Of a stretch of DNA of 64,000 bases, positions 49,201 to 64,000 are shown piece after piece (the first letter of the stretch is position 1; each line of letters starts with the position of its first letter). Below the pieces are notes generated by a model. The model was given only the letters and a program-made list of their open reading frames with translations, searched no databases and was not told the DNA's origin. The position numbers were made by a program, and so were the translations under genes. Origin of the DNA: Pseudoflavonifractor sp. Marseille-P3106 (GTDB taxonomy: Bacteria > Bacillota > Clostridia > Oscillospirales > Oscillospiraceae). The stretch lies in NCBI GenBank assembly GCA_900169975.1, contig LT827126.1, forward strand, positions 186,001 through 250,000, given 5' to 3'.

Positions 49201-49292
49201 GCCCGGCTGTCAGGCATACCCCACCCGCCGGGGACATATAGATGCACAGAAGAAACGAGGCGGGATGCCTGTACAAGGAGTGGAACGCGCTT

Positions 49293-50829: not shown

Positions 50830-51291
50830 ATGGAAGAAAATAAACTCTATGACGATATCGCCCAGCGCACCGGCGGCGATATCTATATCGGTGTGGTAGG
50901 CCCGGTGCGGACGGGAAAATCCACCTTCATCAAGCGCTTTATGGAGACCTTAGTGATCCCCAACATCGAAAACGTCTACCGCCGGGAGCGGGCCCGGGAC
51001 GAACTGCCCCAGAGCGGCTCGGGCCGGACAGTGATGACCGCCGAGCCCAAGTTCGTCCCCGAGGAGGCGGTGCGGGTGGAGATGGCCGACGGCGCCTCCT
51101 TCGCCGTGCGGCTCATCGACTGCGTGGGCTACATGGTCCCCGGGTCCACGGGCCAGATGGAGAACGACGCGCCCCGGATGGTGACCACCCCCTGGTACGA
51201 CCACGACATCCCCATGACAGAGGCCGCCGAGCTGGGGACCCGAAAGGTCATTGCGGAGCACTCCACCATCGGTGTGCTTGATAGCGTTTAG
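50830..51291 (+). pseudogene. spoIVA: SpoIVA 5' part, interrupted at codon 149 by the element
   Basis: Residues 1-149 are a normal SpoIVA N-terminus: P-loop GVVGPVRTGKSTF (21-33), DELPQSGSGRTVMTAEPKFV, RLIDCVGYMVPG, PWYDHDIPMTEAAELGTRKV, EHSTIGV. The Bacillus protein continues VITTDGTI for about 490 residues in total; here the sequence after codon 149 is unrelated and stops after LDSV. Lost are the rest of the ATPase domain and the middle and C-terminal domains. SpoIVA polymerises with ATP on the forespore and is essential for coat and cortex, so sporulation should be blocked unless the gene is repaired by element excision. Confidence 0.9.
51262..51290. other. Candidate left attachment site inside spoIVA
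   Basis: SpoIVA-like sequence ends within CCACCATCGGTGTG (to 51,276) and foreign sequence begins CTTGATAGCGTTT. The precise core cannot be set without the right end. Confidence 0.6.
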
Positions 51292-51433
51292 CAAAAAAAA
51301 GCAGGTCCGGCCATCACCGGAACAAACCAAGTATTACAATCGGAGCGGGACTTCCAACAGCCAAGATTATGTGTACGCCTACACAGACTTTTTTATCAAA
51401 GTTCTCCTTGGCAAACCAGCTCCAATCATCTGA

Positions 51434-51474
51434 CAACAAAGCGGCAGCACATATTTTGTGCTGCCGCTTTGTTG
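51434..51474. terminator. 18-bp hairpin at the element's left end
   Basis: Arms CAACAAAGCGGCAGCACA and exact complement around TATTT; T-rich in the 3' arm. It could stop host transcription entering the element or the reverse. Confidence 0.65.
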
Positions 51475-51565
51475 CCAGATTTTATTGATGCAGATAAAAA
51501 ATTTATGCTAACTGTCCAATATTTTGCTGATGTTCCGTTTTACATTAAGTGGCTGCAATTTGGAT

Positions 51566-51594
51566 GGGGGACCCGTTAAGGGTCTCCCATTTTT
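51566..51594 (+). terminator. Hairpin just upstream of holin gene 1
   Basis: GGGGGACCC / GGGTCTCCC, loop GTTAA, then ATTTTTAT. It ends 22 bases before the first holin ATG, so it could act as a leader attenuator. Confidence 0.6.
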
Positions 51595-51615
51595 ATAAGG
51601 AGATGAGATAACTTC

Positions 51616-52002
51616 ATGAGCATGTTAGATGTTCTCAAGAAAATATACACCATATTTTGGGGAGTTCCAGATAGCTGGCTCTATGCCGTAATAGCGCTTG
51701 TCATACTAGACTATATCACCGGAGTATGTGCGGCAATCCACAGCAAAGAGTTATCGAGTGAAATAGGTGCTAAAGGCATTGCAAAAAAGATGGCGACATT
51801 TGCAGTCATCTCACTCGCGCATATTCTTGATGAATATGTTTTGAAAGAGGGCGGAGCGATACAGACCATGACCTCCATTTTCTACATTGTCAATGAAAGT
51901 ATCAGCATTTTGGAAAATGCGATTCGAACGGGTCTGCCCGTCTGCTGCAATCATGTAAAGTCAACCTTTTCAGATTCGGGCAAGTCATTTCCCCTTATTT
52001 AA
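51616..52002 (+). CDS. Phage holin family protein, copy 1 (altered C-terminus)
   Basis: A 128-residue membrane protein of the phage holin 4/toxin-secretion holin type: three hydrophobic helices (DSWLYAVIALVILDYITGV, ATFAVISLAHILDEYV, MTSIFYIVNESISI). Residues 50-109 are identical to copy 2 (53,860) but the tail after GLPV is unrelated (CCNHVKSTFSDSGKSF), replacing the charged end. AAGGAG lies upstream. Holins form membrane pores for lysin release; the changed tail may alter timing or inactivate it. Confidence 0.82.
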   Translation: MSMLDVLKKIYTIFWGVPDSWLYAVIALVILDYITGVCAAIHSKELSSEIGAKGIAKKMATFAVISLAHILDEYVLKEGGAIQTMTSIFYIVNESISILENAIRTGLPVCCNHVKSTFSDSGKSFPLI

Positions 52003-52053
52003 CTTTGTCATATAATCTTTAGAAAGTTCGATATTTTATATAGTCTGTATGTG

Positions 52054-52079
52054 AAGCGACGTTTTAACGTCGCTTTTGT
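52054..52079 (+). terminator. Terminator after holin gene 1
   Basis: AAGCGACGTT / AACGTCGCTT followed by TTGTGCTTTTT. Confidence 0.7.
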
Positions 52080-52139
52080 GCTTTTTAGGAGACAGAAGTG
52101 ATGCGATAGAGGCTTGTTTACAAAAAAGTAATAATTCGG

Positions 52140-52174
52140 ACTGTCCGATATTCTGGGCTTGCCACGTTTTACAT
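52140..52174 (+). promoter_or_regulatory. 35-bp block shared with 51,511-51,545, possible element promoter
   Basis: ACTGTCC at 52,140 and CGTTTTACAT at 52,165, with the same 25-base offset as in the copy at 51,511 and 51,536. Both lie ahead of genes (lipoprotein and holin 1). No sigma-A pair fits, so it may be a phage late-type promoter. Confidence 0.45.
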
Positions 52175-52266
52175 AATGAGAGCAGTCAAAGGAGGTGCTA
52201 TCTATCCAAGTAACAAGCAGTATCTAATAGTTGCCGAAAAATGTAATGAAGAGGAGTAATTGAAAG

Positions 52267-52986
52267 ATGAAGTTTATTTGTGAAAGCGCAACTGTTATCA
52301 TCCAGAGGTTGGGAACTTCTCTAAAAAAGAATAGAATCGATGTTTTCATTCTTCTGCTGGTTCTCACCGCCTCACTTGCTGCATGTAGCCAATCTCAAGA
52401 GTTACCTGAGGCATCAGGTGAAACAATGGACTGGGAGCGTCAGGAAATAATCTTGGAAGATGGAATCCCTTGGTCTGTGGATGAGCAGGGGAATCGCATC
52501 CAGTTAGGCGAAGCTCTTCAACCTCCGGCTGAGTGGGAAAATCAGGACCTGGGAGGAAGGAATGAGGCAACGACCTTGAGCGGGGACCCTGATGTACAAG
52601 GAGCACTCATTTCTCAGACAGATGGATGGCTTGTTGTGACATATACCAGAGGCGATACATATGTCTATAAAACGTCAGATGGTGGAAGCACTTGGGTAGA
52701 AACGAATGCTCCGGACATTTTATATGTTCCAGGAGCTGTTGGCTTCATAAATGAAGACCGACTGATAATTGCAGAAAAGCTCTTTGTTGGCGCCCCTGTC
52801 TTCATCACTAAAGATGGTGGTGAGAGCTGGGAACAGGTAGAAATGCCAAATGAAAGAGCAGTGGTACAAAGAATTGAAGTAACTAAAGATAAGATTGTCA
52901 TGTTCGTCCAGAAAGGTGAAGAAAGATGGGAAATGGAATCTTTTGACCTTGGCGATTCATGGTCCATAATCCAGTCATTACAATAG
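52267..52986 (+). CDS. Lipoprotein with BNR/Asp-box repeats
   Basis: A 239-residue protein with an unusually long N-terminal region before the lipobox LAAC (Cys about 39), so it is probably membrane-anchored outside. Three Asp-box-like motifs (TSDGGSTWVE, TKDGGESWEQ, and DLGDSWSI) suggest a beta-propeller-like fold as in sialidases or Ycf48; catalytic residues are not evident. Superinfection exclusion or surface change are possible roles of a prophage lipoprotein, but unproven. Confidence 0.75.
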   Translation: MKFICESATVIIQRLGTSLKKNRIDVFILLLVLTASLAACSQSQELPEASGETMDWERQEIILEDGIPWSVDEQGNRIQLGEALQPPAEWENQDLGGRNEATTLSGDPDVQGALISQTDGWLVVTYTRGDTYVYKTSDGGSTWVETNAPDILYVPGAVGFINEDRLIIAEKLFVGAPVFITKDGGESWEQVEMPNERAVVQRIEVTKDKIVMFVQKGEERWEMESFDLGDSWSIIQSLQ

Positions 52987-53109
52987 GTAGATATAGTGGC
53001 CCGTTTTAGCTGCCTTGGACAAGTGGTTAATGCGTTAAGTCCTCTTGGCCGTTGCACCTACTCATTGTTTTGATATATTGAAACAAATAGAAGAAAGGAA
53101 GTTTATACA

Positions 53110-53754
53110 ATGGCTAAAGGCTGTGATTCTGCAACTACGTTCATGTACGAATCTCGTGCTCAAGAACTGAAGGATGAAGGCTATGTCTTCATCGGCCGCT
53201 ATCTTAACCGTCGTGAGAAAGTTCGTGACGAGTTGACGGCGGCTGAGATTGAGAAGTTGAACGGCAAGGGAATCTATATTGTCGCTCTCTATGAGGCTGC
53301 TGCAGGCAACGACATTAACCACTTCACTAAAGCCAATGGAAAGGCTGATGCGAGAGAGGCAGTCGAGTTGGCGGAGAATTTGGGTGTGCCGGGCGGCTAT
53401 CCGATTTATTTCTGTGTTGATACAGATGTACTGAAGGGCCAGATTGAGACGAACGTCGTTCCTTATGTCCAGGGAGTTCTTGAAATTCTGGAAGACACTG
53501 ACTATAAGCTGGGCGTTTATGGTTCGAAAGCCGTCTGCAAGTACATCCGTGGTAGCTATAGTGCTACAGAGCGGTATATGTTTGTTTGCGACAATGACTG
53601 GAGTGAAACAGACCAGGGTTTCGAGCCTGAAGAATATGATTTCGACGACTGGAATCTGCGGCAGTACAAGTGGAACCAGCCGCTGCCTGAAACCGGCGTT
53701 CTGATTGATTATGTTGAATCCTCCTCCCACGGCGGAGGCGGCTGGATTCTGTAA
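53110..53754 (+). CDS. DUF1906/Rv2525c-like glycoside hydrolase-like protein (probable lysin)
   Basis: A 214-residue TIM-barrel-like protein: MAKGCDSATTFMYESRAQEL, FIGRYLNRREK, YPIYFCVDTDV, GVYGSKAVCKYI and DNDWSETDQG, all typical of DUF1906. It has no signal peptide, as expected for a holin-dependent endolysin, and lies between two holin genes. Enzyme activity has not been shown for most of the family. It has its own terminator. Confidence 0.82.
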   Translation: MAKGCDSATTFMYESRAQELKDEGYVFIGRYLNRREKVRDELTAAEIEKLNGKGIYIVALYEAAAGNDINHFTKANGKADAREAVELAENLGVPGGYPIYFCVDTDVLKGQIETNVVPYVQGVLEILEDTDYKLGVYGSKAVCKYIRGSYSATERYMFVCDNDWSETDQGFEPEEYDFDDWNLRQYKWNQPLPETGVLIDYVESSSHGGGGWIL

Positions 53755-53795
53755 ATCGTTCAAAAAATATAGTAGGTTCTACAGAATTTGCCAAT

Positions 53796-53834
53796 AAAAG
53801 GCGAGCGGCTTTCTCCGAGAGCCGCTCGCCTTTT
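53796..53834 (+). terminator. Terminator after the DUF1906 gene
   Basis: AAAAGGCGAGCGGCT / AGCCGCTCGCCTTTT, 15 bp perfect with a 9-nt loop. Confidence 0.88.
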
Positions 53835-53859
53835 ACAATCCCCGATTTTGAGGTGTAAA

Positions 53860-54252
53860 ATGAGAAACATTGTTCAAATATTTTATGGAATCCCGGATAG
53901 TTGGCTCTATGCTGTCATTGCCTTAGTTGTTCTGGATTATATTACTGGCGTGTGCGCAGCTATCCACAATGGAAGCCTATCGAGCGAGATAGGTGCTAAA
54001 GGCATTGCAAAAAAGATGGCGACATTTGCAGTCATCTCACTTGCACATATTCTTGATGAATATGTTTTGAAAGAGGGCGGAGCAATACAGACCATGACCT
54101 CCATTTTCTATATTGTCAATGAAAGCATCAGCATTTTGGAAAATGCAATTCGAACGGGTCTGCCCGTCCCTGAAAAGCTGAAAAGTATTATCAGAAGTCT
54201 GGGTGAAAGTGAAGAAAGTTCTGAAATTAGTGACGAAAAGGAAGAAAAATGA
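53860..54252 (+). CDS. Phage holin family protein, copy 2
   Basis: A 130-residue protein with the same helices as copy 1 and an intact charged C-terminus (PEKLKSIIRSLGESEESSEI). DNA from 53,989 to 54,168 differs from copy 1 at only six positions, all silent, while the region before is clearly more divergent, which suggests recent gene conversion. GAGGTG precedes the ATG. Confidence 0.82.
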   Translation: MRNIVQIFYGIPDSWLYAVIALVVLDYITGVCAAIHNGSLSSEIGAKGIAKKMATFAVISLAHILDEYVLKEGGAIQTMTSIFYIVNESISILENAIRTGLPVPEKLKSIIRSLGESEESSEISDEKEEK

Positions 54253-54307
54253 CAACATCTTTTCAACAAATCAGGCTGATAAGTTTAGCAAAATATTCAT
54301 TACAACA

Positions 54308-54336
54308 TTGACTAAAATAATGAAATATGGTATAAT
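54308..54336 (+). promoter_or_regulatory. Element promoter 1 (RNase H-RecJ-RecG operon)
   Basis: TTGACT, 17-bp spacer ending ATATGG, TATAAT; the TGG before TATAAT is an extended -10. The downstream sequence has the palindrome CTAAGC-N8-GCTTAG at 54,357-54,376. The same form is found at 61,775 and 63,223. Confidence 0.8.
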
Positions 54337-54356
54337 ATACGAGTAAACAGAAAGCA

Positions 54357-54376
54357 CCTAAGCACCAAAGAGCTTA
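54357..54376. promoter_or_regulatory. AAGCACC operator-like palindrome 1
   Basis: CTAAGC-N8-GCTTAG directly after promoter 1, with an AAGCACC on the left arm, sharing the AAGCAC core with 60,066-60,093 and 61,731-61,762. Confidence 0.5.
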
Positions 54377-54394
54377 GTAGGGAGGAGTCGAAAT

Positions 54395-55090
54395 ATGTCC
54401 GTCAAGCCAGAGGCTGTTATCTATACAGATGGTTCATGTCTTGGAAACCCCGGCCCTGGCGGCTGGGCGTCTATCGTGATAGTTGGTGGCACCACACAGG
54501 AGATGAGCGGCGGAGACCCATCCACAACAAATAACCGGATGGAGCTGCTGGGCGTTATCAATGGTCTGAAATCTCTACGTGGCCCCCACATCGTGAAGAT
54601 TTTCTCAGACTCCAAATACATCACGGACGCTTTCAATAAGTACTGGCTGAAAAGCTGGAAAAAGAACGGTTGGAAGCGGAAGGATGGCCCCCTTAAGAAC
54701 GAGGAGCTGTGGAAGGAGCTGGATGCCCTTACGCAGAAGCATATCTGCACATTCGTATGGGTAAAGGGCCACGCCGGAAACCAGTACAATGAACGGTGCG
54801 ATGAACTGGCAGTCATTGAGAGCCGGAGGGCAAGTGGTGAGTGGACCAATGAGTGGGAGGCCCAGACTGGCGAAGATGACAAAGCTCCACAGAATGATAG
54901 TCCAGAAAGCACTGAGGCCATTGAGGCGTTGGAGGATTACATCAGAACAACGAATAGAGAGATTATCGGAGTAGAGACTCCCTGCGGTAGCCTGCCGTTC
55001 TGCGAGTATTGTGCAGGCGGCTCCGTGCAGTGCATCTGTGCGAAGGCATATATGGCATACCGGAGGGATGTCTGCGCACAGAGGGAATGA
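54395..55090 (+). CDS. rnhA: RNase HI with C-terminal Cys-rich extension
   Basis: A 231-residue protein whose first 145 residues are a complete RNase HI (YTDGSCLGNPGPGGWASIV, TTNNRMELLGVI, SDSKYI, VKGHAGNQYNERCDELA: all active-site Asp/Glu/His present). The final 60 residues contain PFCEYCAGGSVQCICAK, a possible zinc site seldom seen in host RNase HI. It degrades RNA in RNA-DNA hybrids, useful for primer removal by an element that replicates. First gene of an operon with RecJ- and RecG-like genes. Confidence 0.9.
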   Translation: MSVKPEAVIYTDGSCLGNPGPGGWASIVIVGGTTQEMSGGDPSTTNNRMELLGVINGLKSLRGPHIVKIFSDSKYITDAFNKYWLKSWKKNGWKRKDGPLKNEELWKELDALTQKHICTFVWVKGHAGNQYNERCDELAVIESRRASGEWTNEWEAQTGEDDKAPQNDSPESTEAIEALEDYIRTTNREIIGVETPCGSLPFCEYCAGGSVQCICAKAYMAYRRDVCAQRE

Positions 55091-55099
55091 GGAGAGAGT

Positions 55100-56731
55100 A
55101 TGGAGTGGATTCAAAATCCCAATCAGTATAAAAGCATTGAAGATGCGATTCTGGGCATGTCCGGGCAGACGGAGCTAGAGCTGCTGTCCCCGGATACTGT
55201 CCCGCCAGACTGCGTAGACGGCATCCCGGAAGCAGCCCGGGCGATTCAGTTCGCCATTGAAAATAAAATCCCCGTCAAAATTGTTGGGGACTACGACGTG
55301 GATGGGATTACCTCCACGGCCATCCTGACCAAACTGCTCAATTACTATGGAGTGGAGCCAAGCACCTACATTCCCAAGCGGTTCACGGACGGCTATGGGG
55401 TTTCTGAGAAAATCCTGGCTGGCGTAAAGAACACCCTCATCATCACAGTCGATAACGGCATTGCCGCCGGAGACGTTCTGGACAAGGCGGTGGAAGAAGG
55501 CCGAAACGGCGTCGTCGTCTTGGACCACCATCTGCCGGATGGCCGGGAGCCGAAGAACGCGATTGCGGTCGTGGACCCGTATCTACACCCTGACCTGAAC
55601 GAGTTTACAGAGTACTGCGGTGCGGGCCTGGCCTTCAAACTGGCTGAATACATGCTGCTGGACGAGCCACTGGCCATGGCGGAAAAGCTCCTGAATGATA
55701 TCCAGGTGCTTGCCTGCTTTGGCACGATTGCGGACTCTATGCCCCTGATTGGAGACAACCGGCGTATCGTTATGGACGGCATTGCCCTGGTGAACAGCGG
55801 CCGGGCCATGCTGTCGCAGGGCATTAGCCAGCTTCTCACCATCGGCTGCAATGGCAATGAGTTCTCTGTGGAGACGGTATCCTACAACATTGCTCCCCTT
55901 ATCAATGCCCCTGGACGGCTCTACAACGCCGGAGGCACATCTTCTTTGAAGATGCTCATGTGTGACGACCCGATTGAGGCCCAGACCTATGGGGCCAAGA
56001 TGGTTCAAATCAACAAGCAACGCCAGACTCAGGTGAGCACCTGGATGAAGAAAATCCAGGAGGCGCTGAGCAAGGCCCCAGACGAAATTGCTCCAGTCGT
56101 GGTCTTTGAACCTGAGATGCCGGAAGGACTGGTTGGCCTTGTCGCAGGGAAACTGGCCTCTACATATCACTGCCCGGCTATCGTCATGGTGCGGGGTGAG
56201 AATGGCATTGTGAAGGGGTCTGCCCGGACCTATGGGGAGTTCCACATCAAGGACATGCTGGACACCATGAGCAGTCTCTTTACGACCTATGGCGGCCACG
56301 CCGGGGCGGCGGGTATCTCGCTCATGCAGAGTGACATCGAAGAATTCCGGCAGAAGGTGCGGGCATATTTCAAGGACTACCAGACCTCCGGCGGCGGTGA
56401 GTACGTCCTGTACGATGTAGTATTGGCTCCTGAGGATGTGCCTGCGGCTCTGGAGGTTATCAAGAAGTACCAGCCCCTGGGCCAGGGGGTTCCCAATCCG
56501 GTGTGCCGCATCAATCAGTTTGCGGTCGATGCTCCGTTCTATATGGGAGCAGACAAGTCTCATATCAAATTCCCGGGCCAGAACTTCGCTGCTGTGGCAT
56601 TCGGCCTGGCTGGCCAGTATGTTCAGCAAGGGGAGCCAAAGTCCATTGATATGGTGGGTACGATTGGCGAGAACACATTTCAGGGCCGGACTACCACACA
56701 AATTATGCTGCAAGATTTTAAGCCCCATTAA
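55100..56731 (+). CDS. RecJ-like single-strand DNA exonuclease (DHH phosphoesterase)
   Basis: A 543-residue protein with DHH-family motifs GDYDVDGITSTAILTK, VLDHHLPD, ECGAGL-like EYCGAGLAFKLAE, and the DHHA1 motif TYGGHAGAAGISLM. It is shorter than host RecJ, as in phage-borne forms. Role: 5' to 3' resection in recombination or replication of the element. GGAGAGAGT precedes the ATG. Confidence 0.88.
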   Translation: MEWIQNPNQYKSIEDAILGMSGQTELELLSPDTVPPDCVDGIPEAARAIQFAIENKIPVKIVGDYDVDGITSTAILTKLLNYYGVEPSTYIPKRFTDGYGVSEKILAGVKNTLIITVDNGIAAGDVLDKAVEEGRNGVVVLDHHLPDGREPKNAIAVVDPYLHPDLNEFTEYCGAGLAFKLAEYMLLDEPLAMAEKLLNDIQVLACFGTIADSMPLIGDNRRIVMDGIALVNSGRAMLSQGISQLLTIGCNGNEFSVETVSYNIAPLINAPGRLYNAGGTSSLKMLMCDDPIEAQTYGAKMVQINKQRQTQVSTWMKKIQEALSKAPDEIAPVVVFEPEMPEGLVGLVAGKLASTYHCPAIVMVRGENGIVKGSARTYGEFHIKDMLDTMSSLFTTYGGHAGAAGISLMQSDIEEFRQKVRAYFKDYQTSGGGEYVLYDVVLAPEDVPAALEVIKKYQPLGQGVPNPVCRINQFAVDAPFYMGADKSHIKFPGQNFAAVAFGLAGQYVQQGEPKSIDMVGTIGENTFQGRTTTQIMLQDFKPH

Positions 56732-56765
56732 CGGGCCATTCCGATAGAAAGGAGGGGGGACCACC

Positions 56766-58781
56766 ATGAAGCTGTCCTACCTCGGGATTATGAAGGCAAA
56801 AGAACATCAGTTCAACCGTAAAGGCATCTACACCGTAGAGGACCTCGTGCGGTTCCTGCCTCGGAAATACAACGATTTCAGCCGGGAGACCGGCATCCTG
56901 CCGGAGGACCAGACCTCCTGCCTGATTGCCACGGTAACGCGGGTCAATTCCTACCACAACGGCACACCCATGATGATTGCGTTTTGCACCATCCAGCCGA
57001 CTGGCGAAAAACTGCTGGTCAAATGGTTCCGGCAGAACTATATGCTGAATAAAACCAGCGCCTGTGTTGGCCGCGATGTCTATATTTGTGCCAAGCTCGT
57101 CTACGACGAGAAGTACAAGAACTACTCCGCCACGATGCCGGAGCTGTTCGAGCCTAAAATCAGCGAAGGTAAGCGCATTCTGCCCGTCTATCCCAAGATT
57201 CCGGGTATGAGCGCGGAATATCTGACCGAGAAAATGCAGGTGGCTGTGGGTATCCCGGAGGCCACCTCTGAGACCTGCCCCTATGATTTGGTTGCGGAGG
57301 AGAAACTGCTCCCCATTCAGAAAGCCCTCTACTACCTGCATTTTCCCAAGACAATGGAGCAGATTCAGCAGGGGCAGGACCGTATGCTATTTGACGACCT
57401 CCTGTACTTTGCTCTGAACAACGAGTACGCTTCCCGGAACTCTGCCCTCGGCAGTGCCTTTTCTGTGAAAACGCTGGGTGCAGTCAACCGTATCATGGAG
57501 AGTCTGCCTTACAAACTGACCGCAGACCAGAAAACAGCGATTGATTCCATGATTGAGGACGCCCGGAGCGGAAAGCGCATCAATGCCCTCGTGCAGGGCG
57601 ACGTCGGCTGCGGCAAGACGATTGTGGCGTTTCTCCTGATGGCCGCCTTTGTCGATAGCGGATACCAGGCTGTCCTGATGGCTCCGACACAGGTGCTGGC
57701 CCGCCAGCACTATGAAGACCTGAAAGCTCTGGTAGAGCCTCTTGGATTCAAAGCAGTCTATCTAGGCGGGGCAGAGATGAAAGCCAAAGAGAAGAAGGCT
57801 GTGCTGGCGGCTATCGAGAGCGGGGAGGCTAACTTCGTGGTAGGCACCCACGCCATCATCAGCAAGAACGTGACTTATCACAATCTGGCCATTACTGTGG
57901 CGGATGAGGAACATAAGTTCGGCGTGGCCCAGCGGACTGCGCTCATTGAGAAAGCGGCCGCAGGGGTACACAGCATCACGATGAGTGCGACCCCGATTCC
58001 TCGCACCCTGGCCCAGGTCATCTATGGGACTGCTGTGCAGCTCTACACGATTGTGACGATGCCAGAGGGACGCAAGCCGGTCATCACAGGGATTGCCACT
58101 GATGAGAATAAGGTGTTCCGCTTTATCCTGAAAGAGACAAAGCGCGGCCACCAGACCTACGTTGTTTGCCCCATGATTGACCCCAGCGACGATGTAGAAG
58201 GTGTGCTGTCCGTAGAAGAAGTCAGCAGCATCTACCTGAAGGCACTCGGGCCGTACGGCGTTCGGATTGCTACTCTGACCGGCCGGAACAGTAAGGCGGA
58301 GACAGAGGAAATCATCTCAGACTTCAAGGACGGGAAGATTGATGTGCTCATCGCTACCACAGTTATCGAGGTAGGCGTCAATGTACCGAACGCGACGACT
58401 ATGGTCGTTACCAACGCCGAGCGGTTCGGTTTGTCCTCGCTGCATCAGCTCCGGGGCCGTGTTGGCCGCAGCAACCTTCAGTCTTACTGTGTCCTCCAGA
58501 GCACAGACCAGAGTGAGAAAGGCCGTATGCGCCTGGATGCGATGGTCCGAACGACAAATGGTTTTGAGATTGCGGAAGAAGACCTGAAAATCCGTGGTGC
58601 CGGTGACTTCCTTGGAACCCGGCAGAGCGGAGAGAACAAATACATGGCGCTCATGCTGGCCTATCCTGAAAAGTATAAGTATGCCCAGGAAATTGCAAAG
58701 CGGATTCTGGACGATGGAAAGCCTTGCAGAATGCTGGCTCGGGTCAAGAGCGAACAGGAAGCGGGTGTTTCTAGCATATGA
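56766..58781 (+). CDS. RecG-like ATP-dependent DNA helicase
   Basis: A 671-residue helicase that would process forks and junctions. An N-terminal wedge-like OB segment (FLPRKYNDFSRETGILPEDQ) comes before Walker A QGDVGCGKTIVAF, Walker B VADEEHKFGVAQRT, and the motif QLRGRVGRSNLQSY; length and order match RecG. Host RecG is expected elsewhere, so this is an element-borne second copy. AAGGAGG precedes the ATG; its end overlaps the next gene (ATGA). Confidence 0.92.
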   Translation: MKLSYLGIMKAKEHQFNRKGIYTVEDLVRFLPRKYNDFSRETGILPEDQTSCLIATVTRVNSYHNGTPMMIAFCTIQPTGEKLLVKWFRQNYMLNKTSACVGRDVYICAKLVYDEKYKNYSATMPELFEPKISEGKRILPVYPKIPGMSAEYLTEKMQVAVGIPEATSETCPYDLVAEEKLLPIQKALYYLHFPKTMEQIQQGQDRMLFDDLLYFALNNEYASRNSALGSAFSVKTLGAVNRIMESLPYKLTADQKTAIDSMIEDARSGKRINALVQGDVGCGKTIVAFLLMAAFVDSGYQAVLMAPTQVLARQHYEDLKALVEPLGFKAVYLGGAEMKAKEKKAVLAAIESGEANFVVGTHAIISKNVTYHNLAITVADEEHKFGVAQRTALIEKAAAGVHSITMSATPIPRTLAQVIYGTAVQLYTIVTMPEGRKPVITGIATDENKVFRFILKETKRGHQTYVVCPMIDPSDDVEGVLSVEEVSSIYLKALGPYGVRIATLTGRNSKAETEEIISDFKDGKIDVLIATTVIEVGVNVPNATTMVVTNAERFGLSSLHQLRGRVGRSNLQSYCVLQSTDQSEKGRMRLDAMVRTTNGFEIAEEDLKIRGAGDFLGTRQSGENKYMALMLAYPEKYKYAQEIAKRILDDGKPCRMLARVKSEQEAGVSSI

Positions 58782-59218
58782 GCAAGGCCCTGGATAGCGT
58801 ACTAAATGTGAGAGAAGAGTTTTGGGATATACCATACCTCATGGGTAGATACGGCGTGAGTAGAAGCACTCTGACAGGGACGTTTTTTGCCTATGGGATA
58901 CCGAAGGAAAAGGTGGGAACGAAATATCTTTTTCTAAGCACCGAGGTGGTCTTATGGGAAATCACACGCGGGTATGTTCCATTCGGTAGAAAAGACCGTA
59001 TCGTATTGCCAGCATTCGCAGAGTACTCTGAAAAACTATACGAGGAAATATTGCGGGCGAAGGCAGAGAAAGATTTGACAAAAGTCGAACAGCTAAGGGC
59101 GGAAGGCCAACATTATGGAATTAAAAGTACAGGTAATTGGATAAATAGCAGTTGGGTGAATGTGGCAATAGGTGTTCTGTGCGCTCTTGTTTTAATAGCT
59201 GTTTTGCTCGAAATTTAA
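58778..59218 (+). CDS. HTH-domain protein with C-terminal membrane anchor
   Basis: A 146-residue protein of unknown family. Residues 18-60 resemble an excisionase/MerR-like helix-turn-helix (IPYLMGRYGVSRSTLTGTFF, KEKVGTKYLFLSTEVVLW), followed by an acidic helical linker (YSEKLYEEILRAKAEKDLTK) and a single C-terminal helix (WVNVAIGVLCALVLIAVLL). A DNA-binding domain anchored to the membrane is unusual and could tether element DNA, but that is inference. It overlaps the RecG gene by 4 bases. Confidence 0.6.
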   Translation: MSKALDSVLNVREEFWDIPYLMGRYGVSRSTLTGTFFAYGIPKEKVGTKYLFLSTEVVLWEITRGYVPFGRKDRIVLPAFAEYSEKLYEEILRAKAEKDLTKVEQLRAEGQHYGIKSTGNWINSSWVNVAIGVLCALVLIAVLLEI

Positions 59219-59257
59219 GGAGGCAGTTCCCACCTTTGTCCTAGAGGTGATTAGACT

Positions 59258-60061
59258 ATGCAGTATCGATTTATCATTCAGAAAAACCGGGATGGAACCA
59301 TGAGTGCGGACTGTGCCACGGTCTGTGAAGTGCTCAAAGAGCAGAACTGGCTGCATCAGGATGAGGCTCCTTATCTGATGCAGTTGAAGACCTTTGAGAG
59401 TATGAAGCGGGACATGTTCCCGTATCTGACAGACCCCGGTGTATTCGAGGTCCCGGTGGGGAGCATTGAGTTCGTTGAGGCATATCTCCGAAAGATGTAC
59501 GGCATAGAAAAGATGGTGCCCCTGCTCGTCCCAATCCAACTGGACATCCCGGAATACCTTGGCCGTAAAGATGCGCTCGTGAGCAGCAAATCGGAACTGC
59601 GGGACAAGGCCAGCGAGTGGGAAGCAGAGGAAATCTTTCTGAAAAGCGCATCGCAACTCAAATGCGACTACACCGGGGTCTATGATATTAGAAAGGATAC
59701 GTTGCCATCCGATAAGGAAATGTATATCTCGGAGGTGCTGAACATCTTTTCGGAGTGGCGGGTGTTCGTATTCAATGAACGGATTGCCGGAGTCAAGCAC
59801 TACCTGGGAGACCCTTGGGTTATGCCGGATAAGTCCGTGGTCTATCAAATGGTGAGGGAGTACACCTCCTGCCCGGCCGCCTATACGCTGGATGTAGCGG
59901 TTGCCGCAGACCTTTATTCTGGAAAACCGTCTACTGTCGTGATTGAAGTGCATCCGTTCGTTTCGTGCGGGCTTTACGGCTTTGAGGGCAAGGAACTTCC
60001 CAAGATGCTTATTCAGGGCTTTCGCTGGGTCACGGAATTTTTGAGCACTGAGACAATTTAA
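59258..60061 (+). CDS. ATP-grasp-like protein (DUF4343 type)
   Basis: A 267-residue protein with ATP-grasp fold features: FLKSASQLKCDYTGVYDIR (ATP-binding Lys), ISEVLNIFSEWRVFVFNERI, and VVIEVHPFVSCGLYGF near the end (metal-binding Glu). ATP-grasp ligases of this group include peptide and polyphosphate-like ligases found in phages and mobile elements; substrate unknown. GAGGTGA precedes the ATG. Confidence 0.65.
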   Translation: MQYRFIIQKNRDGTMSADCATVCEVLKEQNWLHQDEAPYLMQLKTFESMKRDMFPYLTDPGVFEVPVGSIEFVEAYLRKMYGIEKMVPLLVPIQLDIPEYLGRKDALVSSKSELRDKASEWEAEEIFLKSASQLKCDYTGVYDIRKDTLPSDKEMYISEVLNIFSEWRVFVFNERIAGVKHYLGDPWVMPDKSVVYQMVREYTSCPAAYTLDVAVAADLYSGKPSTVVIEVHPFVSCGLYGFEGKELPKMLIQGFRWVTEFLSTETI

Positions 60062-60065
60062 ATAG

Positions 60066-60093
60066 GTGCCAAGGTGCTTAAGCACCTTGGCAC
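60066..60093. repeat. 28-bp perfect palindrome with AAGCACC half-sites
   Basis: Arm GTGCCAAGGTGCTT followed by its exact reverse complement with no spacer. It lies in the short gap between the ATP-grasp and SprT-like genes and shares the GTGCTT/AAGCAC core with other element sites. Confidence 0.7.
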
Positions 60094-60165
60094 TGTCAAT
60101 TCAAAATTTGCTTCCGCGTCGAAAGAATGGCACAATAGTAACAAAAAGTGCGGTAGGTGGTCAAA

Positions 60166-60732
60166 ATGTTCTTTCAGACGCAGGAAATTCAAAAAGAGTA
60201 CCGCAGATTGGATGGGATTTGCGGCCTTGACACAACCTATATGCCAATTAAGCGATACAGGCAAAAGGGGAAAACAGTGGCTATGTGTGAGTTCACCAGC
60301 CACAGCGCCATCCCAGTTCAGTTCATGTTCAACCTCTATTATCTGGACTGGCTGCCAGAGACAGACTGCATAGATGTTATCCGACACGAGTACGCCCATG
60401 CGGCGGCCGCGTTGCTTTTTGGCCCGGCATCGTTGAGAGGTTCCGGCCACGGGCCGCTGTGGCAGAGGGTATGCGCTATGGTCGACTGCAGGCCGTCTCC
60501 TTATACCTATAACCTGAACGTGTTGGAGCCGCTGGCGACAAAGAAACAAGTGAAAGGCCCGACCTGCCTGGTCCAATGCTGCAGATGTGGTGCCATCACA
60601 GAACATGCGGAAGACAGCCGTATTGTGAAGGTGCTGAAATCCGGGCTGAACTCCTGGAACTATTCCTGCCCGAACTGCGGCGGGCTCAGATTCCGCCTGG
60701 CGGCCGATATACTGGAGGCGAAAAATGCGTAA
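60166..60732 (+). CDS. SprT-like zinc metalloprotease
   Basis: A 188-residue protein with the SprT zinc motif HEYAHAAAALLFG (HExxH) and the third ligand region SGHGPLWQRVCA, plus a C-terminal zinc ribbon (CCRCGAITEHAE, CPNCGG). SprT/SPRTN proteins cleave DNA-protein crosslinks in eukaryotes; element-borne forms are little studied. AGGTGG before the ATG decides the start; a GTG three codons earlier is an alternative. Confidence 0.82.
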   Translation: MFFQTQEIQKEYRRLDGICGLDTTYMPIKRYRQKGKTVAMCEFTSHSAIPVQFMFNLYYLDWLPETDCIDVIRHEYAHAAAALLFGPASLRGSGHGPLWQRVCAMVDCRPSPYTYNLNVLEPLATKKQVKGPTCLVQCCRCGAITEHAEDSRIVKVLKSGLNSWNYSCPNCGGLRFRLAADILEAKNA

Positions 60733-61309
60733 TACATTGCCGTTCATCATCTCATACATCCTGTCAGGCGGACTGCTGTTGGCTTTCTTCCTGAACCGGG
60801 AGAAATATGAATCAGCCAGAAAGTTTCGCTCCTTGGCTGGTCAACTCGCGGCTCTGCTTCTATTGGTCGTGGCGGCGGCCTTCATAGTGGTAAGCTGTTA
60901 TCATGTGACAGAACTCACCGCCGTGTATGAGGGGTGGGTCACGGTATTCCTTATCGGTTCGACCTTGTGCCTTTTTATCGGCGCGGTTATTGTTGAACTC
61001 AATAACCCGCCAGAGCGATACAGCATCCGGCGGCGGCACATCAAATATGCCCTCCAGAGTATGTCCGGTGGAATGGCCTTGCTCTTCCTGGCTGATGTGC
61101 TTCTGCAGTCATACAGCGGAATTTCTGCCGGTGAGGCCATCACATTCACCAATACATATCAGCCACTGTTTATCACCATGCTGCTGATAGCCAGCAGCGA
61201 GTTCTGGTGGAAGGGGGGACGGTATCTGGCATGGGCCTACCGTAACAGCGGCGCTTTGAAAGAGGGCGGCAAGGATATGAGAGAATTGCGGAAGTCCCTC
61301 AGGCGGTAA
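60725..61309 (+). CDS. Integral membrane protein of unknown function
   Basis: A 194-residue protein with about five hydrophobic segments (LPFIISYILSGGLLLAFFL, QLAALLLLVVAAAFIVVSCY, VFLIGSTLCLFIGAVIVEL, MALLFLADVLLQSY, PLFITMLLIASSEFWW). No motif is recognised. It overlaps the SprT-like gene by 8 bases and is the last gene of the operon before a terminator. Confidence 0.65.
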   Translation: MRNTLPFIISYILSGGLLLAFFLNREKYESARKFRSLAGQLAALLLLVVAAAFIVVSCYHVTELTAVYEGWVTVFLIGSTLCLFIGAVIVELNNPPERYSIRRRHIKYALQSMSGGMALLFLADVLLQSYSGISAGEAITFTNTYQPLFITMLLIASSEFWWKGGRYLAWAYRNSGALKEGGKDMRELRKSLRR

Positions 61310-61314
61310 TACGG

Positions 61315-61354
61315 AAAACAGGCGTTCTGAATTTAATCAGAACGCCTGTTTTTT
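61315..61354 (+). terminator. Terminator of the long element operon
   Basis: AAAACAGGCGTTCTGA / TCAGAACGCCTGTTTT, 16 bp perfect with loop ATTTAA, six T. Confidence 0.9.
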
Positions 61355-61369
61355 GCAAAGACCTGTATG

Positions 61370-61609
61370 TCAGCCAATCAGGGTGTGCCAGAGCTGTCCC
61401 AGGAACTCAAAGAGTTCATAGTAAAGGCCCGGAGCGAAGAAATAGAGTACAGCAAGCAGTCCGATAATGGAGAGAATAACGGACAGGCCGGTTTTGATTA
61501 GTTTCACCGCACATGAAATTGCCAAGACAGCGATGAAGATAGCAACGAGTTGGTCTGTTGTAAGGGTAGAAATGAAGGTCTTTGCACTTTCAAAAAATTG
61601 GGTGAGCAT
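61370..61609 (-). CDS. 79-residue two-helix membrane protein
   Basis: Encoded on the opposite strand to its neighbours. Hydrophobic segments QLVAIFIAVLAISCAVKLI and LSVILSIIGLLAVLYFFAPG. AAGGAGGG precedes the ATG. No family is recognised; size and topology resemble small phage or toxin-like membrane proteins, but that is only shape. Confidence 0.6.
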   Translation of the reverse strand: MLTQFFESAKTFISTLTTDQLVAIFIAVLAISCAVKLIKTGLSVILSIIGLLAVLYFFAPGLYYELFEFLGQLWHTLIG

Positions 61610-61730
61610 GGAAAACCCTCCTTTTCTACAAGATACCACATAGAAATAAAAAGGTCAAATAAATTGCATAATCCAATTTGATATGGTAGGCATCAGAGCA
61701 TGAGCACCTCTTGATAATAGTTAAGTATAA

Positions 61731-61762
61731 AAGTGCTTTGGCACAAAAGAACTAAAGCACTT
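61731..61762. promoter_or_regulatory. AAAGCAC palindrome before parA (candidate centromere or operator)
   Basis: AAGTGCTTT (61,731-61,739) and AAAGCACTT (61,754-61,762), 14 bases apart, immediately upstream of promoter 2. Position by a ParA/RHH pair fits an autoregulatory site or parS-like site. Confidence 0.6.
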
Positions 61763-61774
61763 AAGATTTTAATA

Positions 61775-61803
61775 TTGATTATTTTAATGTTATATGGTAT
61801 AAT
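61775..61803 (+). promoter_or_regulatory. Element promoter 2 (parA)
   Basis: TTGATT, 17-bp spacer ending ATATGG, TATAAT: same form as promoters 1 and 3. Confidence 0.78.
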
Positions 61804-61853
61804 ATTGTTACGGTGAGAAAATGGAAACCGAACTTTGAAAGGAGTGCTGCACC

Positions 61854-62615
61854 ATGAAAGTGATTTGTATTGCGAATCAGAAGGGCGGAGTCGCTAAGAC
61901 CGCAACTACCGCGATTCTGGCATCGGTTCTGAAGCAGAAGGGCAATCGGGTCCTGGCTATCGATATGGACCCGCAGGGAAGTTTGAGCAAGCAGGTCGGC
62001 GCTACGACCGAGGGCCATGAGGTCTATGAGGTTCTGAAAGGCAATGTGTCTGCAAGGGACGCTATCCAGCACCTGGAGCGGTTTGACATCCTGCCCACCA
62101 GTATCATTCTGGCCGGGCTGGAGGCGGAACTGATGACGGATGTAGGCAAGTATTTCAAACTGAGGGACGCGATTGAGGAAGCGAACCTCAAGGATGACTA
62201 CGACTACATCATCATTGACACGCCGCCCTCCCTCGGTGTCCCGACGGTCAACGCCATCGTGGCGGCAGATGGGATTCTCGTTCCCACGGACGCGGACTGC
62301 GACTCCATCAACGGCATCGTCCAGCTCAGTGATACCGTGCGGAATGTGAAGAAGTACTGCGGCGTCAACCCCGAAATCCTGGGGATTGTCTTCACCAAGT
62401 TTGACCCGCGTCAGAACAACAGCAAGACCATGCTGGAACTCGCTATGAGGGTTGCGGATATGCTCCACACCAAGGTGTTCCAGACGTTTATCCGTGGCGC
62501 TGTCGCGGTACGCGAGGCCAAGAGCAGTTCCAAGGACCTGGTTGTGAGCCGTCCCGACAGCAAGGTCGTCCTGGACTACACGTCCTTGGCCAACGAGATG
62601 CTCAAGGAGGTTTGA
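61854..62615 (+). CDS. parA: ParA-family partition ATPase
   Basis: A 253-residue Walker-type ATPase with deviant P-loop QKGGVAKTATTA, DMDPQGSLSKQVGA and IIDTPPSLGVPT motifs. It has no N-terminal HTH, so it is the short form that usually pairs with a small centromere-binding protein. Together with 62,618 it forms a type Ib-like partition pair, implying that the element exists as a free replicon at times. GGAG lies before the ATG; it ends just ahead of the partner's ribosome site. Confidence 0.9.
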   Translation: MKVICIANQKGGVAKTATTAILASVLKQKGNRVLAIDMDPQGSLSKQVGATTEGHEVYEVLKGNVSARDAIQHLERFDILPTSIILAGLEAELMTDVGKYFKLRDAIEEANLKDDYDYIIIDTPPSLGVPTVNAIVAADGILVPTDADCDSINGIVQLSDTVRNVKKYCGVNPEILGIVFTKFDPRQNNSKTMLELAMRVADMLHTKVFQTFIRGAVAVREAKSSSKDLVVSRPDSKVVLDYTSLANEMLKEV

Positions 62616-62617
62616 TT

Positions 62618-63094
62618 ATGGCACAGAATGAGAAGCCGAATGTCGACGACCTGTTTGCCAGGATGTTCGGCGGTACGAAGCCGGTGGAGGACACCCCTGG
62701 TGGAGAGGATAGGGAAGAGAATCCCCCGGCCAAAAAGACGGCGGCAAAGCCGCCTGCAAAGGCAAAGAAAGAGGTACAGCCTAAGCCGGAGAAGCCTACT
62801 GAGCCTCAGGAGGTGGCCGAGCCGCCTGCTCAGGAGCCAGCACCGAAGGCTAAGAGAGGGAGAAAGCCCGCTGCCAAGCAGGAAATCAGGTATTTTGGTG
62901 GCTCAAAGGTCAACAGCAATGGACGGGTGCATGTCTCCTACTGGCTTGACACACGGCTTGTCGCCGCGATTGACCGGCGGTGTGCCAGGGAACGGCTCCT
63001 GGGGCGGACCGGAGAGAAGTCCAGCGTGGTTGAATCTGCATTGGCTGAGTACCTGACGAAAGAGTTGGACGAAATTGACGACGAGCTGCTGTGA
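62618..63094 (+). CDS. Partition partner with C-terminal ribbon-helix-helix
   Basis: A 158-residue protein: acidic start (NVDDLFARMFGGTKPVED), a long Lys/Pro/Ala-rich linker (KKTAAKPPAKAKKEVQPKPE) with an AT-hook-like KRGRKPAAKQ, then a ribbon-helix-helix region (GRVHVSYWLDTRLVAAIDRR, RLLGRTGEKSSVVESALAEY). This matches small centromere-binding proteins that work with short ParA. AAGGAGG is seven bases before the ATG. Confidence 0.75.
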   Translation: MAQNEKPNVDDLFARMFGGTKPVEDTPGGEDREENPPAKKTAAKPPAKAKKEVQPKPEKPTEPQEVAEPPAQEPAPKAKRGRKPAAKQEIRYFGGSKVNSNGRVHVSYWLDTRLVAAIDRRCARERLLGRTGEKSSVVESALAEYLTKELDEIDDELL

Positions 63095-63119
63095 GTAGCC
63101 GGATATATTTGCCTCTGAG

Positions 63120-63154
63120 AGGGCCCTGTCACATCTAATGTGGCGGGGCCCTTT
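63120..63154 (+). terminator. Terminator of the parA operon
   Basis: AGGGCCCTGTCACAT / ATGTGGCGGGGCCCT stem with two G-U pairs, CTA loop, TTTGC. The cas5 gene therefore has its own start. Confidence 0.75.
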
Positions 63155-63222
63155 GCTATATTGAATTTGGATTTAGTTTTGTAGATTCCTGTGTGGCAGA
63201 AAAACTACCCACAAAATAAACA

Positions 63223-63251
63223 TTGACTAATATATTGATAAATGGTATAAT
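63223..63251 (+). promoter_or_regulatory. Element promoter 3 (cas5c)
   Basis: TTGACT, 17-bp spacer ending AAATGG, TATAAT. Forms a set with 54,308 and 61,775 and makes the cas gene an independent transcript. Confidence 0.8.
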
Positions 63252-63313
63252 ATTGCCGAAGTCAAGAGAGGACGAAATACACGCAAAAATTCTGCGAAAA
63301 GGAGTGATTCTAT

Positions 63314-64000
63314 TTGGAAGATAAAATCGGCCATGTCAGTATGGATGTTTGGGGCAAGTTTGCTCTTTTTACGAGGCCGGAATGCAAAGTTGAACGATAT
63401 AGTTATGAAGTGCCAACACCTTCCAGCCTCCGTAATTTGCTCCAGAGTATTTACTGGCACCCAACATTTGACTACGAGGTCACTGGTATCCAGGTCTACA
63501 ACCGTGTCAAGCACCGCACAATTACGCGGAACGAACTCAGCTCTGTGATGCGGAGCGGGAATGCGCTGAAAACGATGGAGAGCGTACTGGAAACCGGCGA
63601 AGGACCCTCCCTCAGCGTCCCGGCATCAATGCCCAGACAGCAGAGATGCTCTACTTTCCTTTGCGATGTCTACTATACGGTGTATGCTGCGGTCGTTCCC
63701 AAGCCCAATCTCGATGAGATGGAAGAGGAGTACAACCTGACCAAAATCATTGACATCTTTAAGCGCCGGGTGGAACATGGCCAGTCCTGGCGGACGCCCT
63801 ATCTGGGGATGAAGGAATGCACAGCCTTCTTTGGCCCTCACGAGAGAGAGTCTCAGCGCCGGTCGGTATACGACGGGACGAAGATTCAGTTGGGTCGGAT
63901 GTTCTTTGATGCCGATTACAGCAACCCGGATAATGTCCGCCAGTACTTCTACTACCCGACCATGGAGAATGGATATATCCGGGTGCCATCCAGAAAAGAG
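63314..64000 (+). CDS. cas5c: Cas5c (type I-C CRISPR-associated protein), gene cut by the window edge
   Basis: 229 codons, no stop reached. Family marks: VWGKFALFTRPECKVERYSY, VPTPSSLRNLLQSIYWHPTF, CDVYYTVYAAVV, FKRRVEHGQSWRTPYLGMKE, RMFFDADYSNPDNVRQYFYY, MENGYIRVP. In Bacillus halodurans Cas5d the catalytic Tyr46 is in SIYW; here it is Tyr47. The neighbouring Lys is kept (LTKIIDIF) but the following catalytic His appears as Ile. Cas5c processes crRNA and caps the type I-C Cascade complex. Start is TTG with AAGGAG; ATG at 63,341 would shorten it. No cas3 or cas1/cas2 lies upstream. Confidence 0.85.
   Translation, partial: MEDKIGHVSMDVWGKFALFTRPECKVERYSYEVPTPSSLRNLLQSIYWHPTFDYEVTGIQVYNRVKHRTITRNELSSVMRSGNALKTMESVLETGEGPSLSVPASMPRQQRCSTFLCDVYYTVYAAVVPKPNLDEMEEEYNLTKIIDIFKRRVEHGQSWRTPYLGMKECTAFFGPHERESQRRSVYDGTKIQLGRMFFDADYSNPDNVRQYFYYPTMENGYIRVPSRKE

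What the first reader, a model, noticed from the sequence alone, without database searches (positions are those of the whole stretch)
50830..64000. Mobile element splits spoIVA: possible skin-like developmental switch
spoIVA is intact up to codon 149 and then runs directly into foreign DNA of over 12.7 kb, while spoVM and sipL just upstream are complete. Known parallels are the skin element in sigK (Bacillus, C. difficile) and prophages in spoVFB, gerE, spsM, where excision in the mother cell rebuilds the gene. No case with spoIVA is known to me. SpoIVA is made in the mother cell, so loss of the element in that doomed cell would be harmless, which fits the known logic. Alternatively the strain is simply asporogenous.
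Basis: partly seen in the sequence, partly recalled or inferred. Interest (0 to 1): 0.92.

Follow-up and report, generated by a model that had tools for sequence, protein, structure and literature searches.

The report
Giant mobile element splits spoIVA
In a bacterium with spore genes, a 252,000-base conjugative-type DNA element sits inside the spore gene spoIVA and carries its own site-specific recombinase, plus a small neighbouring gene with a mother-cell-type promoter, so it probably cuts itself out and repairs the gene only while a spore is being made.

Summary
Confirmed and extended. The rest of spoIVA lies on the same contig and strand, 252,229 bp away; no other copy was found. The halves join in frame (492 codons) at a GG dinucleotide, and the element ends form an inverted repeat around that GG, a serine-integrase attP. 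A large serine recombinase (LSR) lies against the right half. Before it is a 66-codon ORF whose upstream site is, at 14-nt spacing, the element's best match to a matrix from the hosts' sipL promoters (inferred sigma-E); by eye the LSR promoter is vegetative: the logic of C. difficile skin. The element has type IV secretion ATPases, ParA, topoisomerase and 24 tRNA-like genes; no virion gene was found in the 40 proteins scanned. Related LSRs lie in split spoIVA, at two further sites, in 11 more genomes of the order (elements from 4.9 kb), and beside sigK-type genes in others. The same genome has spoIIID split by a 9.1-kb LSR element; seven relatives show the same pattern. The restorable architecture is near certain; sporulation-specific excision is strongly suggested but untested. 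My open-access searches showed no report of spoIVA as target. New variant of skin-type gene-intervening elements.

The parts
49090..49161 (+). spoVM (23 codons, TTG start), intact
   Evidence: read from sequence; name by recall
49213..49242 (+). sigma-E-type promoter of sipL-spoIVA: GGCATACC-N14-CATATAGA
   Evidence: a site of this form with 14-nt spacing before sipL in 14 of 14 relatives in which sipL was found, and here; sigma-E assignment inferred
49293..50816 (+). sipL, intact
   Evidence: name by recall
50830..51272 (+). spoIVA 5' part: 147 codons plus GG of codon 148. The rest (last base of codon 148 to the stop) lies outside the window at C20:489502-490537, + strand
51271..51272 (+). 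GG crossover dinucleotide in attL; the one in attR lies outside the window at C20:489500-489501
   Evidence: axis of attP symmetry; shared by attL and attR
51278..51292 (+). left arm of the attP inverted repeat, TTGATAGCGTTTAGC
   Evidence: 14 of 15 bases complementary to GCTAAATGCTATCAA at the right end (sequence)
51273..64000 (+). left 12.7 kb of the 252,229-bp element, which continues to C20:489501 (window base n = C20 base n+186000). At its right end, outside the window, + strand: sigma-E-type site C20:487288-487317, 66-codon candidate RDF gene C20:487336-487536, large serine recombinase C20:487686-489620 (its open frame runs through attR into spoIVA out of frame)
   Evidence: promoter site; small gene; recombinase Pfam Resolvase 2.1e-27 and Recombinase 6.6e-19
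51616..52002 (+). holin-family protein
   Evidence: Pfam PF05105 4e-32
53110..53754 (+). Rv2525c-like glycoside hydrolase
   Evidence: Pfam PF08924 1.8e-35
61854..62615 (+). ParA-type ATPase
   Evidence: Pfam AAA_31 5.4e-47, CbiA/ParA 6.3e-23
63314..64000 (+). start of a Cas5-like gene, followed by Cas8c/Csd1 at L005:11-1855
   Evidence: Csd1 by Pfam 1.9e-125; Cas5 by reading only

Best explanation
A 252-kb conjugative-type mobile element has integrated, by its own large serine recombinase, at a GG dinucleotide in codon 148 of spoIVA. In vegetative cells and in the forespore the element stays and is inherited with the spore. In the mother cell, sigma-E switches on both spoIVA (through the sipL promoter) and the small gene next to the recombinase; the small protein acts as a recombination directionality factor (RDF), turns the constitutively made recombinase to attL x attR recombination, the element leaves as a circle, and the gene is rejoined to 492 codons so that SpoIVA can build the base of the spore coat. 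Shown: insertion, att sites, in-frame rejoining in silico, recombinase, promoter-type match. Inferred: sigma-E identity of the promoter, RDF function, excision, timing and cell specificity.
For: Halves on one contig, same strand, no other copy. Joined gene 492 codons; the joined protein aligns over its full length to 19 of 20 intact relatives and from residue 6 to the other. attP symmetric round GG, 54 of 82 positions self-complementary. LSR against the right half. Small ORF directly before the LSR; an HMM from 8 such ORFs finds further members on the same strand within about 2 kb upstream of related LSRs, incl. 4 of the 5 loci at sigK-type genes. Its upstream site is the best of 252,199 + strand positions, and no - strand site reaches it, at 14-nt spacing, for a matrix from 15 sipL promoters; over 17 such ORFs the scores exceed 5,612 background windows (Mann-Whitney 1.6e-8; one per divergent lineage, 11 ORFs, 4.7e-5). 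Published parallel: C. difficile skin has a sigma-A-expressed recombinase and a 72-aa sigma-E/SpoIIID-dependent RDF (PMC5025042, passages); SPbeta has the order attL-rdf-int-attR (PMC6957869, passages). Recurrence: same-family LSRs at split spoIVA in 11 further genomes. Both halves keep pN/pS like intact relatives. spo0A and two SigK/SigE-type sigma genes are open.
Against: No excision product, transcript or spore was observed; the assembly has no empty site. The sigma-E identity is by likeness to sipL promoters only. With 13-15-nt spacing two - strand sites in the element reach the same score. Six of the 17 companion ORFs score below 9 (G400, G702, G032, L069, G179, G531), and one (G089) was found through the promoter scan, so its score is not independent. 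Companion ORFs are very divergent (8-26% identity to ours), vary in charge (pI 4.3-9.7 in the 8 computed), one more HMM hit lies elsewhere in the G246 element, and none was compared with the published RDF sequence. pN/pS cannot tell a recent insertion from a kept function. The same genome also has spoIIID split, so a non-sporulating strain is conceivable.
Confidence: 0.8

Rival explanations
1. An ordinary integrative element that merely uses spoIVA as its attachment site; it leaves only for horizontal transfer, and carriers cannot sporulate.
For: Conjugation-type genes; no excision data; spoIIID is also split in this genome, which could mean that sporulation is no longer needed.
Against: The element's best sipL-like promoter site stands before the small gene beside the recombinase; target genes identified so far for this LSR family are mother-cell genes (spoIVA, sigK-type), though most of the 32 fetched relatives have unidentified targets; frames intact and pN/pS normal; a 4.9-kb element whose two other long ORFs read like a permease and an Fe-S protein still splits spoIVA.
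Confidence: 0.15
2. A decaying, immobile insertion in an asporogenous lineage.
For: Two mother-cell genes are interrupted.
Against: LSR, both att arms and both spoIVA parts intact; spo0A, SigK/SigE-type, sipL and spoVM genes open.
Confidence: 0.03
3. Assembly chimera joining unrelated DNA to spoIVA.
For: G+C step at the junctions.
Against: Both junctions lie in one 1.03-Mb contig, meet at the same dinucleotide, restore the frame and build a symmetric attP.
Confidence: 0.01
4. A jumbo prophage inserted in spoIVA, as SPbeta is in spsM.
For: Holin, phage-tail-lysozyme domain, YqaJ exonuclease, 24 tRNA-like genes, 252 kb.
Against: No terminase, portal or capsid match among 40 element proteins in Pfam or 10 of them in PHROGs (two weak structural hits there lie in an Ig-like repeat); T4SS coupling protein and VirB4-type ATPase present; no relative of the ATPase or of the recombinase in one IMG/VR scan each. 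Most ORFs were not scanned.
Confidence: 0.08

Closest known systems
skin element of C. difficile in sigK (CD1231 recombinase, CD1234 RDF)
   Same: Large serine recombinase with a vegetative-type promoter, separate small gene with a sigma-E-type promoter, mother-cell target gene, in-frame rejoining (published facts from passages of PMC5025042)
   Different: Target is spoIVA; 252 kb with conjugation genes; small gene beside the recombinase; excision not shown here; protein sequences not compared
SPbeta prophage in spsM of B. subtilis (SprA/SprB)
   Same: Large complete mobile element (134 kb) in a mother-cell gene; order attL-rdf-int-attR (PMC6957869, passages)
   Different: SPbeta is an active phage and spsM is dispensable for spore formation itself (recalled); here a conjugative-type element in spoIVA, nearly twice the size
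gin element in gerE of B. cereus ATCC10987
   Same: Non-phage gene-intervening element with serine recombinase and a helper factor GirX (PMC5595907, passages)
   Different: 28.6 kb, three serine recombinases, other target gene
Giant plasmids with related transfer genes, e.g. OY725878.1 (Subdoligranulum variabile, 247,546 bp, circular)
   Same: Size, G+C 0.50, VirB4-type ATPase 43% identical; 19 of 256 element ORFs of 100 aa or more match it
   Different: Only a 149-residue partial match to our LSR and no tRNA found; att sites not compared; typed non-mobilizable by PLSDB

Membership tests
skin-type gene-intervening element of sporulation genes | splits a sporulation gene with both parts kept in the same orientation | tested here: met
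skin-type gene-intervening element of sporulation genes | element-borne site-specific recombinase beside an att site | tested here: met
skin-type gene-intervening element of sporulation genes | excision would restore the reading frame exactly | tested here: met
   492 codons; the joined site reads like that of the 17 of 20 intact relatives displayed
skin-type gene-intervening element of sporulation genes | recombinase or RDF under mother-cell control | tested here: inconclusive
   promoter-type match only; not measured
skin-type gene-intervening element of sporulation genes | excision in the mother cell during sporulation | not testable with these tools
   no cultures or reads
integrative and conjugative element | type IV secretion ATPase and coupling protein | tested here: met
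   (PF02534 1.3e-45; PF19044 1.7e-19)
integrative and conjugative element | relaxase | tested here: inconclusive
   none among 40 Pfam-scanned element proteins; other ORFs not scanned
integrative and conjugative element | integrase and att sites | tested here: met
temperate jumbo phage | terminase, portal, major capsid genes | tested here: inconclusive
   none found among 40 Pfam-scanned and 10 PHROG-scanned proteins; most ORFs not scanned

The most novel reading that the evidence does not exclude
A family of recombination cassettes (serine recombinase plus a small two-helix directionality factor, often with a mother-cell promoter) has spread over several mother-cell genes of this bacterial order (sigK-type genes, three sites in spoIVA, and by a more distant recombinase spoIIID), carrying any cargo from under 5 kb up to a 252-kb conjugative-type element. 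Some hosts must then remove two elements in one mother cell (spoIIID and spoIVA in this genome, and probably in G143, where the pieces lie on separate contigs), a stepwise DNA-rearrangement programme in spore formation.
Probability: 0.55. Interest if true: 0.92.

Novelty: new variant of a known kind. Interest (0 to 1): 0.85.

Why it matters
spoIVA is needed for spore-coat and cortex assembly (recalled), so carriers should have to remove the element to make spores. A quarter-megabase conjugative-type element cut out of one doomed cell would be nearly twice the size of SPbeta (134 kb, the largest such element in the passages I saw) and would show that conjugative-type elements, not only prophages and their remnants, exploit the mother cell as a place where gene loss is free. 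The recurrence at spoIVA and spoIIID, and beside sigK-type genes, suggests that developmental DNA rearrangement is common in these bacteria; it also warns that gene-presence pipelines may call such strains non-sporulating because spoIVA or spoIIID looks broken.

Tried and rejected
Jumbo prophage: first suspected from size, tRNAs and holin; conjugation genes and absence of virion matches in the scanned proteins made it a rival.

Other two-piece or partial spoIVA matches (28 genomes re-run, 7 counted; 16 re-run, 4 counted): I counted only those with a related LSR on the 3' side. The short flanks fetched for the other genomes were part of the LSR search (ORFs of 150 aa or more) and gave none; of the uncounted ones only G562 and G702 were fetched. 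Not counted: G023, G037, G081, G096, G103, G120, G166, G203, G208, G233, G304, G321, G371, G394, G414, G491, G533, G536, G562, G581, G676, G739 (many of these matches end at contig ends; the rest unexplained); G046 (pieces overlap, looks like a frameshift); G296 and G535 (two full copies); G228, G272, G378, G681 (a full copy plus a fragment); G205, G299, G441 (not resolved). G702 was left out: its recombinase points at the 5' part and no 3' part was found. G540 is counted on its 3' side only: its 5' piece is cut by a contig end at model position 340.

Excised forms: no IMG/VR contig with the attP joint or with a relative of the recombinase; no empty site in the assembly.

Sigma-E matrix on G531, G400, G032, G179, G702, L069: no good match; G531 has a site that fits the consensus I recall for B. 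subtilis (ATCATATT-N14-TATACGTG, by eye), which was not tested.

Targets of the LSR relatives (32 loci): 3 lie at spoIVA, 5 against a sigK-type 3' part (L073, L075 best as SigK in NCBIfam; L081 slightly better as SigE; L072 and L099 by likeness only; in L072, L081 and L099 the frame leaves the sigma factor after about 50 codons; 5' parts were not sought). For the other 24 I saw no sporulation gene by eye and did not follow them.

Literature (PMC open-access library only): searches showed no report of spoIVA or spoIIID as an interrupted gene. spoIVA was a term (15 of 15 papers listed; 15 of 977 listed), spoIIID (9 of 9 listed). I saw listings and abstract starts, plus passages of PMC5025042, PMC4191935, PMC10747680, PMC5595907, PMC6957869, PMC13141910, PMC7438776 and PMC517825; a look into PMC3738446 gave no passage. 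Searches (jumbo phages; promoter consensus) gave background only.
Full report
OBSERVATION. spoIVA begins at window 50830 and is intact for 147 codons plus GG (51271-51272); it then enters foreign DNA and stops after five codons. The window is bases 186001-250000 of contig C20 (1,025,722 bp) of a 3.12-Mb genome in 20 contigs. A whole-genome search with TIGR02836 found exactly two pieces, model positions 1-150 at C20:236830 and 144-492 at C20:489488, same strand. The insert is 252,229 bp. Joining the flanks in a script gives an uninterrupted 492-codon SpoIVA with STIG|IVVTTDG at the joint. Intact relatives read STIG[IVL]V[VI]TTDG there (17 of the 20 fetched relatives matched my search pattern and were displayed, L118, L121 and L127 were not).

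ATT SITES. The element ends, put together as attP, read GCTAAATGCTATCAA-CCAGA-GG-TGTGC-TTGATAGCGTTTAGC: 15-base arms, 14 of 15 complementary, at equal distance from a central GG at which both junctions agree. This is the layout of a large serine integrase site (recalled knowledge of that enzyme class).

RECOMBINASE AND COMPANION GENE. Directly before the right half, on the same strand, is a large serine recombinase (C20:487686-489620; Pfam Resolvase and Recombinase). Its open frame runs through attR; in the circular form it would end with a different tail (658 codons). By eye its promoter is TTGAAC-N16-TATAAT, vegetative type (not scored). Just upstream lies a 66-codon acidic ORF (C20:487336-487536; pI 4.3). 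I looked at the sequences before sipL in 20 fetched relatives: in 14 a sipL match was found in the stretch, in 6 not. In these 14 and in the window host a site with CATA in both boxes and the same 14-nt spacer occurs (picked by eye, verified). A matrix from the 10 distinct sites, scanned over the element with 14-nt spacing, has its top score on the + strand (252,199 positions) at GTCATATC-N14-CATATCAT (C20:487288-487317), 18 bases before the small ORF; no - strand site scores as high. With spacers of 13-15 two - strand sites also reach that score. I call this sigma-E type because sipL and spoIVA are mother-cell genes (recalled) and spoIVA is used as a sigma-E target in C. difficile (PMC5025042, passage); that is inference.

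COMPANION FAMILY. For eight LSR elements at spoIVA I picked a small ORF by eye (G089's through the promoter scan). An HMM from these searched 5,815 short open segments around the LSRs and found further members outside the seed set, same strand, upstream of the LSR, in L064, L056, L109, L069 and L107 (G641), and weaker ones in L099, L075, L072, L081, which lie at sigK-type genes (E 1.7e-16 to 0.004). In G089, G307 and G367 the ORF lies about 2 kb before the LSR, otherwise next to it. One further hit lies about 4 kb before the LSR of G246, and weaker hits (E above 0.3) were not used. For 17 of them the best promoter score before the ORF exceeds background (5,612 windows; p 1.6e-8; 11 divergent lineages p 4.7e-5), but six of the 17 score below 9. 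AlphaFold2 on the 16-row alignment gives helices 8-25 and 31-41 (blocks 11-40 at pLDDT 91-97; mean of the whole 74.6, pTM 0.52); SHOCT_2 is the best but sub-threshold Pfam match of two of them. The likeness to the published C. difficile scheme, constitutive recombinase plus sigma-E-driven 72-aa RDF (passages), is close; sequences were not compared.

WHAT THE ELEMENT IS. G+C 0.44-0.55 in 10-kb blocks inside it against 0.59-0.66 in the host DNA sampled. 24 tRNA-like genes in L005-L016 (one without a clear anticodon; the window part was not scanned for tRNAs). Of 40 element proteins scanned in Pfam, 16 had no family at E <= 0.001; the others include a VirD4/TraG coupling protein, a second coupling-like protein, a VirB4/TraG P-loop ATPase, topoisomerase IA, NrdD, UvrD helicase, a sigma-70-like factor, YqaJ exonuclease, cytosine methylase, Cas8c/Csd1, a CHAP-lysozyme protein, an SLH-CAP protein, holin, ParA, PhoH and a second serine recombinase. 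No terminase, portal or capsid, and no relaxase, among these 40. The VirB4-type ATPase occurs at E <= 1e-60 in 34 of 300 family genomes (our own included, with three matches), the best other one 47% identical, and in circular records such as OY725878.1 of 247.5 kb (43%); 19 of 256 element ORFs of at least 100 aa (mechanically called) match that record. I therefore read the element as an integrated giant conjugative-type element.

RECURRENCE. Family scan: 400 genomes, 332 with spoIVA matches, 321 over the cut-off. Of 28 partial or double cases re-run, 7 (G089, G246, G307, G367, G032, G143, G179) break at model position 398-406, all with a related LSR against the 3' part (phmmer E 4.4e-107 or better); three have both parts on one contig, 30.7, 42.1 and 46.3 kb apart. 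For six elements of this site tested (G089, G246, G307, G641, G032, G143) the CA with the most symmetric attP (17 to 20 of 24) is the one that rejoins spoIVA in frame (only CA positions were tried). Order scan: 396 genomes, partly the same ones, 371 with a match, 362 over the cut-off. Of 16 re-run, G641 breaks at the same place (41 kb; LSR 10.8 kb from attR), and G531, G400 and G540 break near position 405-417, where the LSR frame reads in frame into the SpoIVA C-terminus (641 and 628 codons, and a 652-codon open segment); the 5' piece of G540 is cut by a contig end. The G531 element is 4.9 kb with two other long ORFs. That is 11 further genomes. In genome contigs (32 loci) the LSR of our element finds three more at spoIVA and five against sigK-type 3' parts (two clearly SigK, the others less sure); some may be the same species as G genomes. 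In the tree of 44 LSRs the codon-404 rows form one group (86/53), our LSR joins them (95/92), the sigK-type rows fall into one 100/100 branch together with two others, the codon-411 rows need two changes; root and long branches, ours among them, are uncertain.

A SECOND SPLIT GENE. spoIIID of the same genome is also in two pieces on C13, 9,140 bp apart, joining in frame to STVHKDLSERLP; that element has a more distant LSR (about 30% identical), a Mob_Pre protein and what reads like a restriction-modification pair. No companion ORF of the family above was recognised by eye before that LSR.

SELECTION AND SPORULATION GENES. pN/pS of both spoIVA parts against eight congeners is 0.06-0.18 (5' part) and 0.11-0.28 (3' part), within or near the range among the intact genes (0.01-0.17 and 0.06-0.28); a recent insertion would give the same. 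spo0A is over its cut-off and two SigK/SigE-type sigma genes are open, though under the SigK cut-off.

CONCLUSION. Insertion, att sites and exact restorability are shown (about 0.97). Mother-cell-timed excision driven by the companion gene is the best explanation (0.8). It works like a skin element and meets the sequence-level criteria for one, with mother-cell control resting on a promoter likeness; cell-specific excision itself could not be tested. New here, as far as my open-access searches reach: spoIVA as target at three sites, a 252-kb conjugative-type element as the insert, and joint splitting of spoIIID.

Noticed in passing
L131 (G000:C13:112001-128000), pieces at C13:124471-124587 and 115217-115354, - strand: spoIIID of the same genome is split by a 9,140-bp element with its own serine recombinase and a Mob_Pre protein; the joined gene is in frame.
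   Followed up: yes
G015, G029, G044, G054, G100, G150, G174: spoIIID shows two ordered pieces on one contig at the same codons, 7.7-29 kb apart: spoIIID looks like an insertion hot spot.
   Followed up: partly
L101:5357-7282; L102:6443-8329; L104:1391-3349: At the codon-411 site the recombinase frame reads in frame into the last 85 or so codons of spoIVA, giving a recombinase-SpoIVA fusion frame while integrated.
   Followed up: partly
L109 (G702:C18:1-6500): A related recombinase points towards the 5' part of spoIVA and no 3' part was found in the genome: possible inversion or loss.
   Followed up: partly
window 63314-64000 and L005:11-1855: The element carries Cas8c/Csd1 behind a Cas5-like frame (type I-C CRISPR proteins); other cas genes were not searched for.
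   Followed up: no
L006:14510-17472 and L016:9931-15384: Two clusters of 11 and 12 tRNA-like genes in the element.
   Followed up: no
L005:12079-13215: A second, shorter serine recombinase (378 aa) inside the element, perhaps of a nested element.
   Followed up: no
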